Shown here: positions 25,163 through 30,614 of the stretch, in pieces
How positions within the stretch are numbered: position 1 is the stretch's first letter
Layout: the number at the start of each line of letters is the position of its first letter
Source of the DNA: an uncultured Acidimicrobiales bacterium
GTDB lineage: Bacteria > Actinomycetota > Acidimicrobiia > Acidimicrobiales > SZUA-35
DNA: 64,000 nucleotides
Reading direction: 5' to 3'
Assembly (NCBI GenBank): GCA_938021675.1
Contig: CALIFY010000030.1
Span: 1-64,000 of the forward strand
Translations under genes and position numbers: made by a program
Notes under the pieces: model-generated
Databases searched by the model: none
The model's input: only the letters and a program-made list of their open reading frames with translations
What the model was told of the DNA's origin: nothing

Positions 25163-25642
25163 ATGACCGCCAACGTTGCGACCGAAAACCTTGTGGGTCG
25201 AGACGACCTGTTGGCGTTCGTCCGGCCCCGGCATCAGTGGGTGATGACGACGCTACGACGCGATGGCCGACCGCAGGTTTCACCGGTCACCGGTGGTGTG
25301 AACTCCGGGGGACAGCTGGTGGTTGCCACCTATCCAATGCGTGACAAGGTCTACAACCTCCGACGCGACTCACGCGTGACCGTCTGTGTCATGAGCGACC
25401 ATTTCGGCGGTGCGTGGGTACAGGTTGATGGACAGGCCACGATCACCGATGTGCCTGACGCCGTCGACGGGATGGTCGAGTACTTCCAGGCGGTGTCTGG
25501 CCAGCATCCGGATTGGGATGAATATCGCAAGGCCATGGTCAGGCAAGGTAAGTGCCTGATTTCAATCGACGTCGACCGTTGGGGTCCGATCGCTACGGGA
25601 GGCTTTCCCGCCGCGGTCATTCCGTTATTGTCCGACGATTAA
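25163..25642 (+). CDS. PPOX-class F420-dependent flavin-fold enzyme
   Basis: 159 residues from ATG at 25163. The split-barrel fold shows as L-L-A-F-V-R-P-R-H-Q-W-V-M-T-T-L-R-R-D-G, R-P-Q-V-S-P-V-T, and the K-V-Y-N-L-R-R-D-S-R-V-T-V-C-V-M block, then W-V-Q-V-D-G-Q-A-T-I. Actinobacterial members of this pyridoxamine-oxidase-like family use coenzyme F420 to reduce assorted substrates. The longer upstream frame overlaps the divergent exonuclease start and has no family similarity, so it was not used. Confidence 0.88.
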   Translation: MTANVATENLVGRDDLLAFVRPRHQWVMTTLRRDGRPQVSPVTGGVNSGGQLVVATYPMRDKVYNLRRDSRVTVCVMSDHFGGAWVQVDGQATITDVPDAVDGMVEYFQAVSGQHPDWDEYRKAMVRQGKCLISIDVDRWGPIATGGFPAAVIPLLSDD

Positions 25643-25755
25643 CCCTCCCACCAGGTCGTCGCCGCCATCGACGCCGGTTCAGTTCCCAATGCAGACGCCT
25701 TGGCGGCCGCACACGTCATCTTCTCGTCATGTTTCGTGGGCTACTAGTCCTAGTG

Positions 25756-27228
25756 ATGAAAAACACAAAACATCCCCTATCTAAAAGGTCTTCGGTAGTG
25801 CGTCGACGGCGGGCGACTTTAGTCGCGGTTGGTGCCCTGTTGGTCGCCGCTTTTGGCCTCACGTTCACTGCTATGGCTTCGGCCCACAACGACTCACTCC
25901 GAGTTCGCACCGGTTCGATCGGTGAAGATCAAAGTATCGATGCCCTGGCGGTCCAGGACCAAGAGGGAACGGTCGACGATTGGGACAACTACGTCGAGTT
26001 CATTCCAGAGGACGGCACCCGTCACGATTCGGTGATGCGAATCGAACCGCAGGGAACCGGGGGTGCGTCGCTGACCGCCGACGTCAACTTCAGGGGCCCC
26101 GAAGGCGACGAGAACCTTTGGACGGTGTCGGTGCGCGATATCGAAGCCAGAGCATGGGTCGAGGTGTTCAGCAATGAGGACACCGAAAGCTGGGTGTGGT
26201 CCTCAGCCTCAACCACGCTCGACGATTCTGCTCGGTTCGTTAACTCCCGCGGATCGGTGTGGGTGCGGTATCAATCTGCAAACGACTTCGACGTCAGCCA
26301 ACTGGACTATGTCGGCCTGACTTTGAGTGGTGACCACCCGGATCCGACCGTCCCAACGACGATCGCTCCGACCACCACCACCATGGACGATACGACGACC
26401 ACCACCGTGGACGATACGACGACCACCACCATGGACGATACGACCACCACCACCATGGACGATACGACCACCACGACCAGTGGTGACGGTGGAGGCGGCG
26501 ACGTTCAACTGCCTCCGAGCAACGCCGGTTTCGACTACCAGATCGGTGGGGCATACGAGGTCCCGTCCGATGCTGGCGTCGTGTCCCGTGACTGGGAGGC
26601 CGAGGCCGCCCCTGGCGTCTACAACGTGTGTTACATCAACGCCTTCCAGACTCAGGGCAACTATGGCGGCACCCGTCCAGACGAGTCTCAGAACTGGCCG
26701 TCGTCGGTCGTCCTAAGAAGTTCTGAAGACCCGAACTGGCCCGGTGAGTTCCTCATCGACATCAGCACGACCGAGAAGCAGGAGACGGCGGCAGCTCACT
26801 TGCAGCAGCTGATCGACATCTGCGCCGATAAGGGTTTCGACGCTATCGAATACGACAACCTCGACTCCTGGACCCGTCTTCCGAACCTTCCGTTCGACCA
26901 AAGGGACACCGTGTCGTACGCCACCATGATCACCGAGCGTGCTCATGATGCCGGCCTTGCGGTAGCGCACAAAAACACGACTGACCTGATCGCCTCCGGT
27001 GATCACGAGACCATCGGCTTCGACTTCGCTATCGCCGAAGAGTGCGGTCAGTGGGACGAGTGTGATGTCTTCGTCTCCGGATACGGCTCGCTCGTTATGG
27101 CGGTCGAGTACTCCACTGAAGGGTTCGCCAAGGCGTGCAGCGAATATGGCGACCAGATCTCGATCATTCGACGCAACGTTGACGTCAGCTCTCCATCATC
27201 GGGTGGGTACGTTCGAGAGACCTGCTAG
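25756..27228 (+). CDS. Secreted GH114-type endo-alpha-1,4-polygalactosaminidase-like protein
   Basis: 490 residues. Start at ATG 25756, giving a signal peptide with basic start (K-N-T-K-H-P, R-R-R-R) and core T-L-V-A-V-G-A-L-L-V-A-A-F-G-L-T. Residues about 45-200 form a domain I do not recognise. A Thr/Asp linker with four T-T-T-T-M-D-D units (about 206-245) follows. The C-terminal GH114 barrel has Y-Q-I-G-G-A-Y, N-V-C-Y-I-N-A-F, F-D-A-I-E-Y-D-N-L-D, A-V-A-H-K-N and F-A-I-A-E-E-C. GH114 enzymes cut galactosamine polymers of extracellular polysaccharide. A strong terminator follows. Confidence 0.92.
   Translation: MKNTKHPLSKRSSVVRRRRATLVAVGALLVAAFGLTFTAMASAHNDSLRVRTGSIGEDQSIDALAVQDQEGTVDDWDNYVEFIPEDGTRHDSVMRIEPQGTGGASLTADVNFRGPEGDENLWTVSVRDIEARAWVEVFSNEDTESWVWSSASTTLDDSARFVNSRGSVWVRYQSANDFDVSQLDYVGLTLSGDHPDPTVPTTIAPTTTTMDDTTTTTVDDTTTTTMDDTTTTTMDDTTTTTSGDGGGGDVQLPPSNAGFDYQIGGAYEVPSDAGVVSRDWEAEAAPGVYNVCYINAFQTQGNYGGTRPDESQNWPSSVVLRSSEDPNWPGEFLIDISTTEKQETAAAHLQQLIDICADKGFDAIEYDNLDSWTRLPNLPFDQRDTVSYATMITERAHDAGLAVAHKNTTDLIASGDHETIGFDFAIAEECGQWDECDVFVSGYGSLVMAVEYSTEGFAKACSEYGDQISIIRRNVDVSSPSSGGYVRETC
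26371..26477. repeat. 24-bp tandem repeat in the GH114 linker
   Basis: About four copies of a unit with core ATGGACGATACGAC separated by ACC runs; encodes T-T-T-T-M-D-D-T linker units, one copy with GTG in place of ATG. Confidence 0.93.
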
Positions 27229-27876: not shown

Positions 27877-28560
27877 TCATGTACCTGCTCCATACTCGTC
27901 GTGGCGACGGATCCAACCGTATGGTTCCGTCTGCGGCCACCCAGGAGGCGAATCCTCCCACTGTTCCTGTCGACCGAACACGGTCAGATCGAGATAGGTC
28001 CAATGACTGCCAAGGTGTTCGACGCCGCGGTCGACGGTCATGTAGGTGCGAAAGACGTCGTCGCCCCGCCGAAGAAATACGCTCAGGGCGTGAGATTCCT
28101 CACCGTCGACGGTCGCTCCCATGTCATCGTTGAAACTCGTTCGGCGTGATGAGTACCACGGGAGGTTCCACCCCATTCGGCTGCGATAGGCCTCAAGCTC
28201 GGCAACGGGAGCACGAGAGACGAGCACCAGCGAGGTATCGCGGGCAGCGAGATGGGCGGGGTGAGGCATGGCGTCGGCAACCCAGGAGCAACCGCTACAC
28301 CCCTCAACCCAGCCCGGGCCAAACATAAAGTGGTAGATGATCAATTGGCGGCGGCCGTCGAACAAGTCGAGCAGAGAGATCGCCCCATCGGGCCCATCGA
28401 ACTCGTATGGGGTGTCGATCTGCACCATTGGCAGTCGGCGACGTCGAGCCGCAAGAACGTCGAGTTGACGGGTTAGTTCCTTTTCGTGGAGGCGAAGCTC
28501 ATCGAGAGCCTCCCGCCAGTCGTCGAGACCGACGACTTCGGGGAACTCGGTACCGCTCAT
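27877..28560 (-). CDS. DUF899 thioredoxin-fold protein
   Basis: 227 residues. Family blocks: W-R-E-A-L-D-E-L-R-L-H-E-K-E-L-T-R near residue 15, Y-E-F-D-G-P-D-G, L-I-I-Y-H-F-M-F-G-P-G-W, and the C-S-G-C-S-W redox-like motif, followed by V-L-V-S-R-A-P and W-Y-S-S. DUF899 proteins have a thioredoxin-like fold; their substrate is unknown. The Cys pair is intact here, in contrast to the TGA-interrupted redox gene 1.1 kb away. Confidence 0.9.
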   Translation of the reverse strand: MSGTEFPEVVGLDDWREALDELRLHEKELTRQLDVLAARRRRLPMVQIDTPYEFDGPDGAISLLDLFDGRRQLIIYHFMFGPGWVEGCSGCSWVADAMPHPAHLAARDTSLVLVSRAPVAELEAYRSRMGWNLPWYSSRRTSFNDDMGATVDGEESHALSVFLRRGDDVFRTYMTVDRGVEHLGSHWTYLDLTVFGRQEQWEDSPPGWPQTEPYGWIRRHDEYGAGT

Positions 28561-28644: not shown

Positions 28645-29559
28645 TTATCCACCGCAGCCACCACAGCCTCCACCACCACAGCCACCGCCGCCGCCGTCAC
28701 CGCCACCATCGCTACCGCTGTCACTTCCGCCGTCACTTCCGCTGTTCGAATCGTCATCGGAGGAGCCACCACCGAAGAGGCCAAGGCCCCACAACGCGGC
28801 GTCGCTCGAATCGGAACGCCGGCGATTGCCAGACGTCGTACCGCCAGACGCCTTGTCGAGACCACCGCGAACGATACGGAACGCGATGAAGGCCAACCCG
28901 CAGACGAGAGCGGCCAGCAACACCCATCCGATGCCACCGCTCCCCTCAGACTCGACCTGGGCGGCAAACAGACACCCGGTCAACCCGCTAGCCGACGCGC
29001 CGACCAAGACCGCGCGACCGGCGACCGACGGGCCAGGCTTTGGCACCACCCACCGGTGGGTGGTGTTGATCCTCACGTAGTTCGACGCCTCACCGAACCG
29101 AATCTCGGATCGAGGCCAAATGTCCGATGGCGGTTCGGTCCCGAACCACGCTCGGTAACTTGCCAGCGTTCGGGCGTACCAATCGTCGAACTTCGCCCCC
29201 TCGGCTGCCCCGCCCTCCGTCGGGCCGTGGTGGAACGGGCCACCGAGAATCCGGCTACAGAGATCGTCCCAGTACGAACGGGTATAGGTGAGGTGGAGAT
29301 GCCAGGCTTGATCGACCTCATCACTTGGTGTGACCGGGTGTCCGGCCACTTGTCCGAGAAACAGAAATCGTCGGTACTCCTCGACAACCCGAACCGAGAA
29401 GTTACGGCTCCAGCCATTGTCACGGGCGAGCCGAGCTTCGAACGGAAAAGTTACGTCGCCCCTATCGATGGCCAGCGTCTGAAGCTGATCCCACAACACG
29501 CGATGTTCCGGCGACAACTTCGCCGTTTCGGACAGATCAAACCTGCTGCTCCTCTGCAT
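28645..29559 (-). CDS. Membrane protein with glycine-rich-domain module and Cys/Gly-rich tail (TIGR04222-like)
   Basis: 304 residues from ATG at 29559. Residues 1-140 match the bacterial 'glycine-rich domain-containing' module: D-E-V-D-Q-A-W-H-L-H-L-T-Y-T-R-S-Y-W, G-P-F-H-H-G-P-T, then W-F-G-T-E-P-P-S-D-I-W-P. Two membrane helices follow (about 178-195 and 207-225). After a Ser/Asp-rich stretch the protein ends in glycine runs with three cysteines, the type of ending seen in TIGR04222 membrane proteins. Function is unknown; the tail may coordinate metal or be processed. It is divergent from the candidate selenoprotein gene, 84 bases between starts. An open frame upstream to 29832 overlaps that gene and was not used. 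Confidence 0.78.
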   Translation of the reverse strand: MQRSSRFDLSETAKLSPEHRVLWDQLQTLAIDRGDVTFPFEARLARDNGWSRNFSVRVVEEYRRFLFLGQVAGHPVTPSDEVDQAWHLHLTYTRSYWDDLCSRILGGPFHHGPTEGGAAEGAKFDDWYARTLASYRAWFGTEPPSDIWPRSEIRFGEASNYVRINTTHRWVVPKPGPSVAGRAVLVGASASGLTGCLFAAQVESEGSGGIGWVLLAALVCGLAFIAFRIVRGGLDKASGGTTSGNRRRSDSSDAALWGLGLFGGGSSDDDSNSGSDGGSDSGSDGGGDGGGGGCGGGGCGGCGG

Positions 29560-29643
29560 AGAGAAATCATATGGGGGAACGATCAACCCGTCGCCGCGGC
29601 CGTCGCTTTGACGAAGTCGGTGCTGTCGTGATGAAGTGCGGGG

Positions 29644-30339
29644 GTGAACACGGTCATCGATGACATCCGTTCGTTGCGACGATCCTCTGGGGCACTCATC
29701 CTCATCACTTACCGAGGCGACTGGTGACCATACTGTTGCGCTCAGCTCGTGCGGCTGGCAGCAGATAGGGAACGAATCAACAACGCTGGGGCCGAGGTCA
29801 TAGCGATTTCGGTCAACGACGACATCCGCCAAGCCGGTATGTCGCAGCGGTGGGGTCTTTCGTCAATCCGTCTGGTGAGCGATCCGGGCGGCACGCGCTT
29901 TTTGCAACCGCTCGGCCTCTACGACCCAGCCGAGCGGGGTGGTATAGCGTTGACCGGCCATCTAGTAATCGGCCAAGAGTCTATCGATGATGATGGCGTC
30001 GTCTATCGCTCGACCGGACGAGATTTTGCCGACCGTACGGCCGACGACCGCATGTACGAGGCCCTCGATGGGCTGAACTTGCCATCGATCTCCCCCGAGC
30101 CGGTCACCTACAGCGTTTCGGTCCCGGAGGATCTCACCGGGTTCTTCCGACCGCAAAACTTCGTGCCGTACTTTGGCGGAAACCGGTTCGCCGCCATCGC
30201 TATCGCCCGGAGGTTGCCGTCCAAAGAAACGGCGGCGGTCGCCCGACAGCACCGCATGATGGCAGAGGCCAGCCTGGAATCCTGGGATCGACATCAGCCC
30301 ACGATCGAACCAGCGGACGAACCGGAGACCGAGCGCTAG
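29644..30339 (+). CDS. Peroxiredoxin-like selenoprotein candidate (in-frame TGA read as selenocysteine, UxxC active site)
   Basis: From GTG at 29644 the frame runs to a TAG at 30337-30339 with one interruption, TGA at 29725-29727. Reading TGA as selenocysteine gives 231 residues with T-Y-R-G-D-W-U-P-Y-C at residues 22-31. The AhpC/TSA-like peroxiredoxin family has Y-R-G-D-W-C-P-Y-C there, so U28 replaces the first Cys of CxxC, the redox-active residue. Sequence before the TGA (S-S-G-A-L-I-L-I-T-Y) and after it (C-A-Q-L-V-R-L, G-A-E-V-I-A-I-S-V, R-L-V-S-D-P-G-G) both fit the thioredoxin fold. A SECIS-like hairpin follows at once. Without recoding, only a fragment from GTG 29749, lacking the active site, would be called. 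Alternatives: a nonsense mutation or a base error. selA, selB, selC and selD are not in the window. Confidence 0.82.
29733..29764 (+). promoter_or_regulatory. Putative bacterial SECIS hairpin
   Basis: Begins five bases after the TGA. Lower stem of seven pairs, 29733-29739 (CUGUUGC) with 29758-29764 (GCAGCAG), one G-U; a three-base 5' bulge (29740-29742); upper stem CAGC 29743-29746 with GCUG 29754-29757; loop 29747-29753 (UCGUGCG), which with a U-G closing pair becomes CGUGC, with G second. Loop distance (about 20 bases from UGA) and an apical-loop G agree with known bacterial SECIS rules. Folding was done by eye. Confidence 0.65.
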
Positions 30340-30614
30340 ATAGGTGACAAGAGAGAAATCTCGATAGGCGGCAACGATTCCTTCGGCCCCCACCGGCCAC
30401 CACCTCAAGGGCCTCCCTCTTCCTGCCGTTCACACCACTTACAAGCGGTGAACACGGCTGGCACTAGATGCTGGGCCGATGAACGGCTTGAGACGATTTC
30501 CCCCGAAGGACCGCCGACGAGGGTTCGAACCACCGTGACCATCACACCGGCCCCAGCCGCCCCCTATCTCGCAGACCTTCACAGACACCAGACCCCCTTT
30601 CTCCGGGAGCAGCG
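30340..30614. other. Non-coding gap before the TadZ/CpaF genes
   Basis: 275 bases with no convincing gene. Short inverted repeats such as GAGAGAAATCTC (30350-30361) are weak. A GGGTTCGAACC at about 30511-30521 looks like a tRNA T-loop, but flanking bases do not form a T stem. It presumably holds the promoter of the downstream pair. Confidence 0.5.

What the first reader, a model, noticed from the sequence alone, without database searches (positions are those of the whole stretch)
29644..30339. Candidate selenoprotein: peroxiredoxin-like gene with in-frame TGA at the first active-site cysteine
Seen: one continuous frame from GTG 29644 to TAG 30339 is broken only by TGA 29725-29727, in the context R-G-D-W-(TGA)-P-Y-C. 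Known: AhpC/TSA-like peroxiredoxin-fold proteins have R-G-D-W-C-P-Y-C, and selenocysteine usually replaces exactly such a catalytic Cys. Inferred: UGA is recoded, giving a UxxC redox centre. A random nonsense mutation would hit this codon only rarely, and both flanks remain well conserved and full of normal codons. Ordinary annotation would report a 196-residue protein from GTG 29749 with no active site.
Basis: partly seen in the sequence, partly recalled or inferred. Interest (0 to 1): 0.92.

Follow-up and report, generated by a model that had tools for sequence, protein, structure and literature searches.

The report
Selenocysteine-containing peroxiredoxin-like redox protein
This gene looks interrupted by a stop codon, but the codon is conserved in all close relatives found, sits at the active site and is followed by a conserved RNA hairpin, so it very probably encodes selenocysteine in a small redox enzyme that standard annotation would miss.

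Summary
Observation confirmed: one frame, GTG 29644 to TAG 30339, broken only by TGA 29725-29727 in RGDW-TGA-PYCC. The selenocysteine reading is strongly supported. The genome has tRNA-Sec, selA, selB, and a selD with its own in-frame TGA. All 28 close orthologues examined, window included, have TGA at this column. Synonymous choice in codons +5 to +10 is strongly constrained; they form a hairpin paired in 168 of 168 cells, with compensatory changes, where a bacterial SECIS would lie. Of 15 outer relatives, 10 have TGA and 5 TGC at the column. Refinement: the codon aligns with the Thr of the peroxiredoxin TxxC motif; the peroxidatic Cys aligns with the second residue of UxxC. The clade lacks the usual N-terminal strands and has a C-terminal extension with two predicted helices and no Pfam match. 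It works like the known Prx-like UxxC selenoproteins (PF00578); no NCBIfam model reached its cut-off for the two members tested. Catalysis and partner are inferred; no experiment was possible. New member of a known kind.

The parts
29644..30339 (+). selenoprotein gene, 231 residues with TGA 29725 read as Sec, ends at TAG
   Evidence: PF00578 38.4 bits against cut-off 26
29725..29727 (+). Sec UGA codon, residue 28, first position of the UxxC motif
   Evidence: TGA in 28 of 28 close orthologues
29734..29739 (+). codons for Cys31-Cys32; Cys31 completes UxxC and aligns with the peroxidatic Cys of PrxQ-type peroxiredoxins
   Evidence: both invariant in A1 (8 of 8); motif alignment
29742..29758 (+). 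SECIS-like hairpin: consensus 6-bp stem 29742-29747 with 29753-29758, 5-nt loop CGUGC 29748-29752, loop 20 nt after the UGA. Folded alone, the window sequence pairs C29741 instead of U29742 with G29758
   Evidence: fits the bacterial SECIS constraints quoted in PMC13188914 section 5
30151..30294 (+). C-terminal extension, two predicted helices (residues 170-188 and 194-217), no Pfam match

Best explanation
UGA 29725 is decoded as selenocysteine by the genome's own SelA/SelB/SelD/tRNA-Sec system, directed by a hairpin that occupies nt 15-31 after the UGA, inside the coding region. The product is a 231-residue peroxiredoxin-like selenoenzyme of thioredoxin fold whose centre is Sec-Pro-Tyr-Cys. 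Most likely the Sec attacks a disulfide or peroxide and Cys31 resolves the selenenyl intermediate, with re-reduction by a cellular thiol or thioredoxin system. Supported by comparison: recoding, machinery, fold, UxxC motif. Inferred: the catalytic cycle, the substrate and the electron donor.
For: Machinery: tRNA-Sec 67.3 bits, cut-off 47, and ARAGORN tRNA-SeC with anticodon tca; selA E 7.4e-100; selB 266 bits, cut-off 242.25, next to selA on contig C28; selD 373.2 bits, cut-off 125, with GAG-TGA-GCKL. Another gene of the same genome matches NF041054 (WAxxUGC_long) at 502 bits (cut-off 300) with TGA at the U. TGA in 26 of 26 close loci of the genome-contig scan plus the window and L014, 28 in all. 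SelA in 8 of 8 order genomes with an orthologue against 183 of 298 overall, and in 20 of 20 further orthologue-bearing genomes, one as a fragment at a contig end. Sec/Cys interchange in outer relatives, 10 TGA and 5 TGC of 15. Synonymous entropy for codons +5 to +11 is 0.42 of expectation against 0.82-0.98 in the other stretches. Hairpin paired in 168 of 168 cells, 4 cells with change on both sides and a covariation score that none of 500 shuffles reaches. Fold: peroxiredoxins, best Z 16.0 over 138 residues, rmsd 2.7.
Against: The hairpin of the window alone is no more stable than shuffles (z -0.10, -0.26 and -0.76, -0.99); the case rests on the comparison. In one search the number of further pair types is not above shuffles (226 of 500 reach it), and 10 of 500 reach the two pairs with change on both sides. 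The SelB wing-2 model PF09106 found nothing in the genome, although TIGR00475 matched SelB. No SECIS family was among the Rfam matches up to E 1. One orthologue (L016, the same contig as L074) is cut short after about 145 residues, by a frameshift or real decay. Of 9 outer Sec-form genomes searched, one (L086) has no SelA over the cut-off and one (L087) only a weak partial match; 3 of 5 outer Cys-form genomes also have SelA, so the machinery does not predict the form there. RNAalifold on 9 outer Sec forms gave no covarying hairpin. Nothing here shows that the protein is made.
Confidence: 0.93

Rival explanations
1. Same Sec recoding, but the protein is a peroxidase of peroxiredoxin type in which Cys31 is the peroxidatic residue and Sec28 the resolving partner, the reverse of the thioredoxin-like order.
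For: Cys31 aligns with the peroxidatic Cys (or Sec) and Sec28 with the conserved Thr of TxxC in two peroxiredoxins of the same genome and in L035; best structural matches are PrxQ/BCP and AhpE.
Against: With Sec at the Thr place the TxxC motif is lost; the first residue of an xPxC motif at a helix start is normally the nucleophile, and Sec is the better nucleophile (established knowledge, not tested here).
Confidence: 0.25
2. The TGA is a real stop: a nonsense mutation, a pseudogene or a sequencing error, with a 196-residue remnant from GTG 29749.
For: Ordinary gene calling gives this ORF; most records that carry the orthologue are metagenome assemblies.
Against: TGA at the same codon in 28 of 28 close orthologues on separate contigs; codon-position pattern of selection on both sides; SelA in all 28 orthologue-bearing genomes.
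Confidence: 0.01
3. UGA is read as another residue, such as Trp or Cys by a suppressor tRNA or a changed code, not as Sec.
For: In-frame TGA alone does not name the residue.
Against: TGA is also the apparent terminator in 11 of 24 orthologues (of L051-L076, L073 was not printed by that script and L074 is cut short, so both are left out), so the code is not changed as a whole; tRNA-Sec and SelA/B/D are present; the 5 outer relatives without TGA carry Cys, not Trp; a SECIS-like hairpin lies at the right distance.
Confidence: 0.03

Closest known systems
Prx-like thiol:disulfide oxidoreductase selenoproteins (PF00578, UxxC/UxxU; Table 1 of PMC13188914; 'Prx-like 1' of PMC2398784)
   Same: AhpC/TSA domain, UxxC motif, Cys-form relatives.
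   Different: Lacks the first strands of the domain (profile entered at position 24), has a conserved Cys right after UxxC and a C-terminal extension with two predicted helices; the close clade is all Sec in what was examined. The reference protein WP_010940744.1 was not held, so direct kinship was not measured.
SelL-related redox proteins (NCBIfam NF040769)
   Same: Best NCBIfam match by E-value for the window protein; the matched stretch covers the active site.
   Different: 18.8 bits against a cut-off of 120; 27.6 bits for orthologue L052.
Sec peroxiredoxin, TxxU (PrxQ/BCP type; one copy in the same genome, L132)
   Same: Same fold and superfamily.
   Different: There U stands at the peroxidatic place (TPGU); here U stands at the Thr of that motif.
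BcpB and AhpE of Mycobacterium tuberculosis (5epf; 4xih and other entries)
   Same: Among the best structural matches over residues 1-146 (5epf Z 16.0, 2.7 A over 138 residues; 4xih Z 15.4).
   Different: About 20% identity; solved Cys enzymes without UxxC or the C-terminal extension (recalled, not checked here).

Membership tests
Bacterial selenoprotein | in-frame UGA at a column where homologues have UGA or Cys | tested here: met
   28 of 28 close orthologues TGA; of 15 outer relatives 10 TGA, 5 TGC
Bacterial selenoprotein | Sec machinery (selA, selB, selC, selD) in the genome | tested here: met
   PF09106 alone gave no hit
Bacterial selenoprotein | SECIS hairpin just after the UGA: loop 3-9 nt with G in its first two places, stem 4-16 bp, 16-37 nt from UGA, MFE at most -7.5 kcal/mol (PMC13188914 section 5) | tested here: met
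   loop 5 nt with G second, consensus stem 6 bp, spacing 20 nt, -8.7 kcal/mol for the window hairpin; single-sequence z-scores not significant for the window; one of four hairpins folded, L054, is at -7.2
Bacterial selenoprotein | Sec shown in the protein | not testable with these tools
   needs 75Se labelling or mass spectrometry
AhpC/TSA (PF00578) | profile score over the curated cut-off | tested here: met
   38.4 bits against 26; 8 of 8 members of A1 match at E up to 1, best 3.4e-15
Canonical peroxiredoxin | TxxC (or TxxU) with the peroxidatic residue three places after Thr | tested here: not met
   Thr replaced by U, giving UxxC
Prx-like thiol:disulfide oxidoreductase selenoprotein, PF00578 UxxC | PF00578 domain with UxxC | tested here: met
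   definition from PMC13188914 Table 1
Prx-like thiol:disulfide oxidoreductase selenoprotein, PF00578 UxxC | sequence kinship with the reference protein WP_010940744.1 | not tested
SelL-related redox protein NF040769 | score over cut-off 120 | tested here: not met
   18.8 bits

The most novel reading that the evidence does not exclude
A separate, Sec-fixed subfamily of this order (named relatives: Acidimicrobiales, Ilumatobacteraceae): a cut-down peroxiredoxin fold with a Sec-x-x-Cys-Cys centre, a helical C-terminal cap and a SECIS that constrains its codons, doing a redox job that no Cys form in the clade replaces.
Probability: 0.3. Interest if true: 0.6.

Novelty: new member of a known kind. 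Interest (0 to 1): 0.5.

Why it matters
Ordinary annotation would give this gene as an N-terminally cut protein without an active site, and no NCBIfam model reached its cut-off for the two members tested. In this order SelA is common (181 of 298 genomes over the cut-off), and the same genome holds at least five further genes with TGA at a redox position. These mostly uncultured bacteria may therefore have a sizeable and little described selenoproteome. The clade also gives a clear case of a SECIS made visible by constrained synonymous codons and compensatory changes.

Tried and rejected
Folding the window region alone for a SECIS gave no signal above shuffles; the alignment did. Rfam over 29560-30400 gave one match up to E 1, MIR2907 at 20.9 bits against a gathering score of 60, taken as chance. 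PF09106 as a marker of SelB failed; TIGR00475 succeeded. No relative was confirmed in viral contigs (25 stretches matched a pattern, none by tblastn). Among ORFs of 110 aa or more around 27 loci (L014 left out) no neighbour recurs in more than 3 loci, apart from the gene itself and its antisense ORFs, so context gives no partner. Consensus folding of 9 outer Sec forms (L077 not included) proposed a hairpin that takes in the UGA, without double changes, and was not used. The C-terminal extension was not folded or searched alone, so no claim is made about its fold. Rows not read: 36 of the 80 loci (short weak matches), and the weaker matches that got no locus.

Literature. Of PMC13188914 I saw the abstract and outline, passages, section 5 and part 1 of 3 of section 7; of PMC2398784, PMC5029168, PMC1794560 and PMC9312934 passages only. 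Searches for a description of this protein in its lineage: selenoprotein with Acidimicrobi (2 papers, seen in the listing only, unrelated by title), selenoprotein with Ilumatobacter (none), two or more of selenocysteine, Acidimicrobi and selenophosphate (428 papers, 10 listed, none of the 10 with Acidimicrobi, the rest not seen). The library holds open-licence papers only, so this is weak evidence of absence.

Full report
Observation. The window holds one frame from GTG 29644 to TAG 30339 with a single stop inside, TGA 29725-29727, in the context RGDW-TGA-PYCC. An in-frame TGA at 29632 closes the frame upstream. The plain ORF is 29749-30339, 196 aa. Read through, the protein matches PF00578 at 38.4 bits (cut-off 26, residues 15-111) and PF08534 at 35 bits (cut-off 26.6, residues 18-124).

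Machinery. The genome (4.45 Mb, 99 contigs, 95.26% complete) has a tRNA-Sec at C28:43835-43926, 67.3 bits against a cut-off of 47, which ARAGORN also calls tRNA-SeC with anticodon tca. The Rfam model rings in all 14 control genomes (over the cut-off in 5), and the second match over the cut-off in this genome is a tRNA-Ser by ARAGORN, so the anticodon call is what counts. selA is at C28:9646-10695 (E 7.4e-100; the family rings in 2 of 14 controls). selB lies next to it (TIGR00475 266 bits, cut-off 242.25; over the cut-off in 2 of 14 controls). selD is at C65 (373.2 bits, cut-off 125; over the cut-off in 2 of 14 controls), itself with TGA in GAGUGCKL. The wing-2 model PF09106 gave no match in this genome.

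Relatives. Among 298 genomes of the order, 64 match the protein at E up to 0.001. Eight, the own genome included, are close orthologues (E below 1e-45; 44-64% identity for the other seven) and each shows one TGA inside; the alignment, in which TGA is written C, puts it at the active-site column. All eight genomes have SelA, against 183 of 298 in all; my own arithmetic, (183/298) to the 8th power, gives about 0.02. Of the weaker matches I read the 22 loci L018-L039: other peroxiredoxin-like or thioredoxin-like proteins, with Cys, Thr or TGA at the corresponding place.

A scan of one genome for each of 84,980 species found 123 relatives and kept the best 80. I analysed 44 of these 80: L051-L092, L095 and L116. 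The 26 close ones, L051-L076, all have TGA: 25 by script and L073 by eye. With the window and L014 this makes 28 sequences, and the script asserts TGA in each. One scan pattern, GDWCPYC, as I read it asks for Cys codons at this column and the other, RDFADR[TP]xD, is blind to it, so Cys forms of the clade were not excluded by design; none was seen. Of 15 outer relatives (Rubrobacter, Chloroflexi and others), 10 have TGA (L077, L078, L079, L081-L087) and 5 TGC (L080, L088, L089, L090, L116). L091, L092 and L095 have Cys and are more distant. In a tree of 46 sequences (L074 left out, four outgroup rows added) the five Cys forms sit together (92/78 support) among Sec forms of Rubrobacter, which fits Sec-to-Cys replacement, although nearby forks are weak and the root is a midpoint.

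SelA in the genomes behind the loci (34 genomes). Of 20 further genomes with a close orthologue, 20 have a match over the cut-off (one, L072's, a 53.7-bit fragment at a contig end). Of 9 outer Sec-form genomes, 7 have a strong match, one (L087) a weak partial one of 37.7 bits and one (L086) none over the cut-off. Of 5 Cys-form genomes, 3 have it and 2 do not. L083's genome was not held.

SECIS. On the 28 orthologues, the entropy of synonymous codon choice, against codon use elsewhere in the same genes, is 0.42 of expectation for codons +5 to +11 after the UGA and 0.82 to 0.98 in the other stretches tested; for each of codons +7 to +10 none of 5000 simulations was as low. The same codons form a 6-bp stem with a 5-nt loop CGUGC. 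168 of 168 cells pair. Two pairs show changes on both sides (G-C to A-U in 3 sequences, C-G to U-A in 1; 10 of 500 shuffles reach two such pairs, none reach the 4 cells). The covariation score of 0.162 exceeds all 500 shuffles and the slid controls (at most 0.034); the number of further pair types does not stand out (226 of 500 reach it). RNAalifold finds the same helix unaided. Loop, stem, 20-nt spacing and the -8.7 kcal/mol of the window hairpin meet the published bacterial SECIS constraints (PMC13188914 section 5). In its own best fold the window pairs C29741, not U29742, with G29758. Of the four hairpins folded, three are at -8.7 to -10 and L054 at -7.2 kcal/mol, just short of the published limit. 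The structure came from these sequences, so the slid control leans its way, and the shuffles do not remove relatedness.

Selection. In eight pairs of orthologues third positions differ most, both before and after the TGA: for window against L051, position 1/2/3 differences of 4/2/8 in 17 codons upstream and 16/13/43 in 82 downstream. This is not a decaying downstream part. One of the 28 orthologues (L074, the same contig as L016) is cut short after about 145 residues.

Form and mechanism. AlphaFold2 on eight orthologues gives mean pLDDT 85.1 and pTM 0.84. Foldseek's top matches are peroxiredoxins (5ovq, E 1.9e-6). Residues 1-146 match peroxiredoxins by VIA-align 2 (5epf BcpB Z 16.0, 2.7 A over 138 residues; PrxQ Z 15.6; AhpE Z 15.4; tied within 1). 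Two helices, 170-188 and 194-217, follow. Among the 15 outer relatives, 11 carry a C-terminal stretch of similar kind and 4 (L081, L084, L085, L087) end before it; they have a fuller N-terminus. The U stands where two peroxiredoxins of the same genome and L035 have the Thr of TxxC, while Cys31 stands at their peroxidatic place. From this I infer a thioredoxin-like Sec-x-x-Cys centre, Sec attacking and Cys31 resolving. The reverse order, a peroxidase with Cys31 as peroxidatic residue, is not excluded.

Known kind. PMC13188914 Table 1 and PMC9312934 list Prx-like thiol:disulfide oxidoreductase selenoproteins, PF00578 with UxxC or UxxU. PMC2398784 counts 225 'Prx-like 1' UxxC sequences in ocean data. 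PMC1794560 lists the family and names Actinobacteria as rich in selenoprotein families. The window protein meets that definition by domain and motif. No NCBIfam model reaches its cut-off for the window protein or for orthologue L052. I therefore call it a new member of a known kind, perhaps a separate subfamily.

Noticed in passing
L132 1426-1899 (-), L136 973-2100 (-), L137 1060-1878 (+), L141 1360-2211 (-), L048 (selD), all in the window's genome: Further genes with TGA at a redox position: TPG-U (PrxQ type), WSPY-U-GC (NF041054, 502 bits), APW-U-TSC, GAH-U-GIC and SelD GAG-U-GC. With the window's gene that makes at least six candidate selenoprotein genes.
   Followed up: partly
L020, L021, L025, L027, L030 (RGHW-U-PYC); L039 (RGDW-U-PYC); L019 (RGGW-U-PFC); L031 (ATVW-U-PPC): Other peroxiredoxin-like or thioredoxin-like proteins of the same order with TGA at the corresponding codon; the two scanned, L025 and L039, reach no NCBIfam cut-off.
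   Followed up: partly
order of the window's genome, 298 genomes: SelA over the cut-off in 181 of 298 genomes: Sec use looks common in this order, while two narrow literature searches gave 2 unrelated papers and none.
   Followed up: partly
G000:C28 8466-9521 (-): SelB is found by TIGR00475 but the wing-2 model PF09106 finds nothing in the genome: perhaps a diverged SECIS-binding end matched to its own kind of SECIS.
   Followed up: no
window 27877-28560 (-): DUF899 protein (PF05988, 269.7 bits), about 1.1 kb upstream of the selenoprotein gene.
   Followed up: no
window 25552-27228 (+): ORF with a run of DDTTTTT repeats, like a linker between two parts.
   Followed up: no
L016 / L074 (same contig): Orthologue with TGA at the column but cut short after about 145 residues: frameshift in assembly or real decay.
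   Followed up: no
window 28645-29832 (-): The longest antisense ORF runs across the start of the selenoprotein gene; a later start near 29559 would leave the two genes divergent. The shorter form has no Pfam match up to E 0.001.
   Followed up: partly
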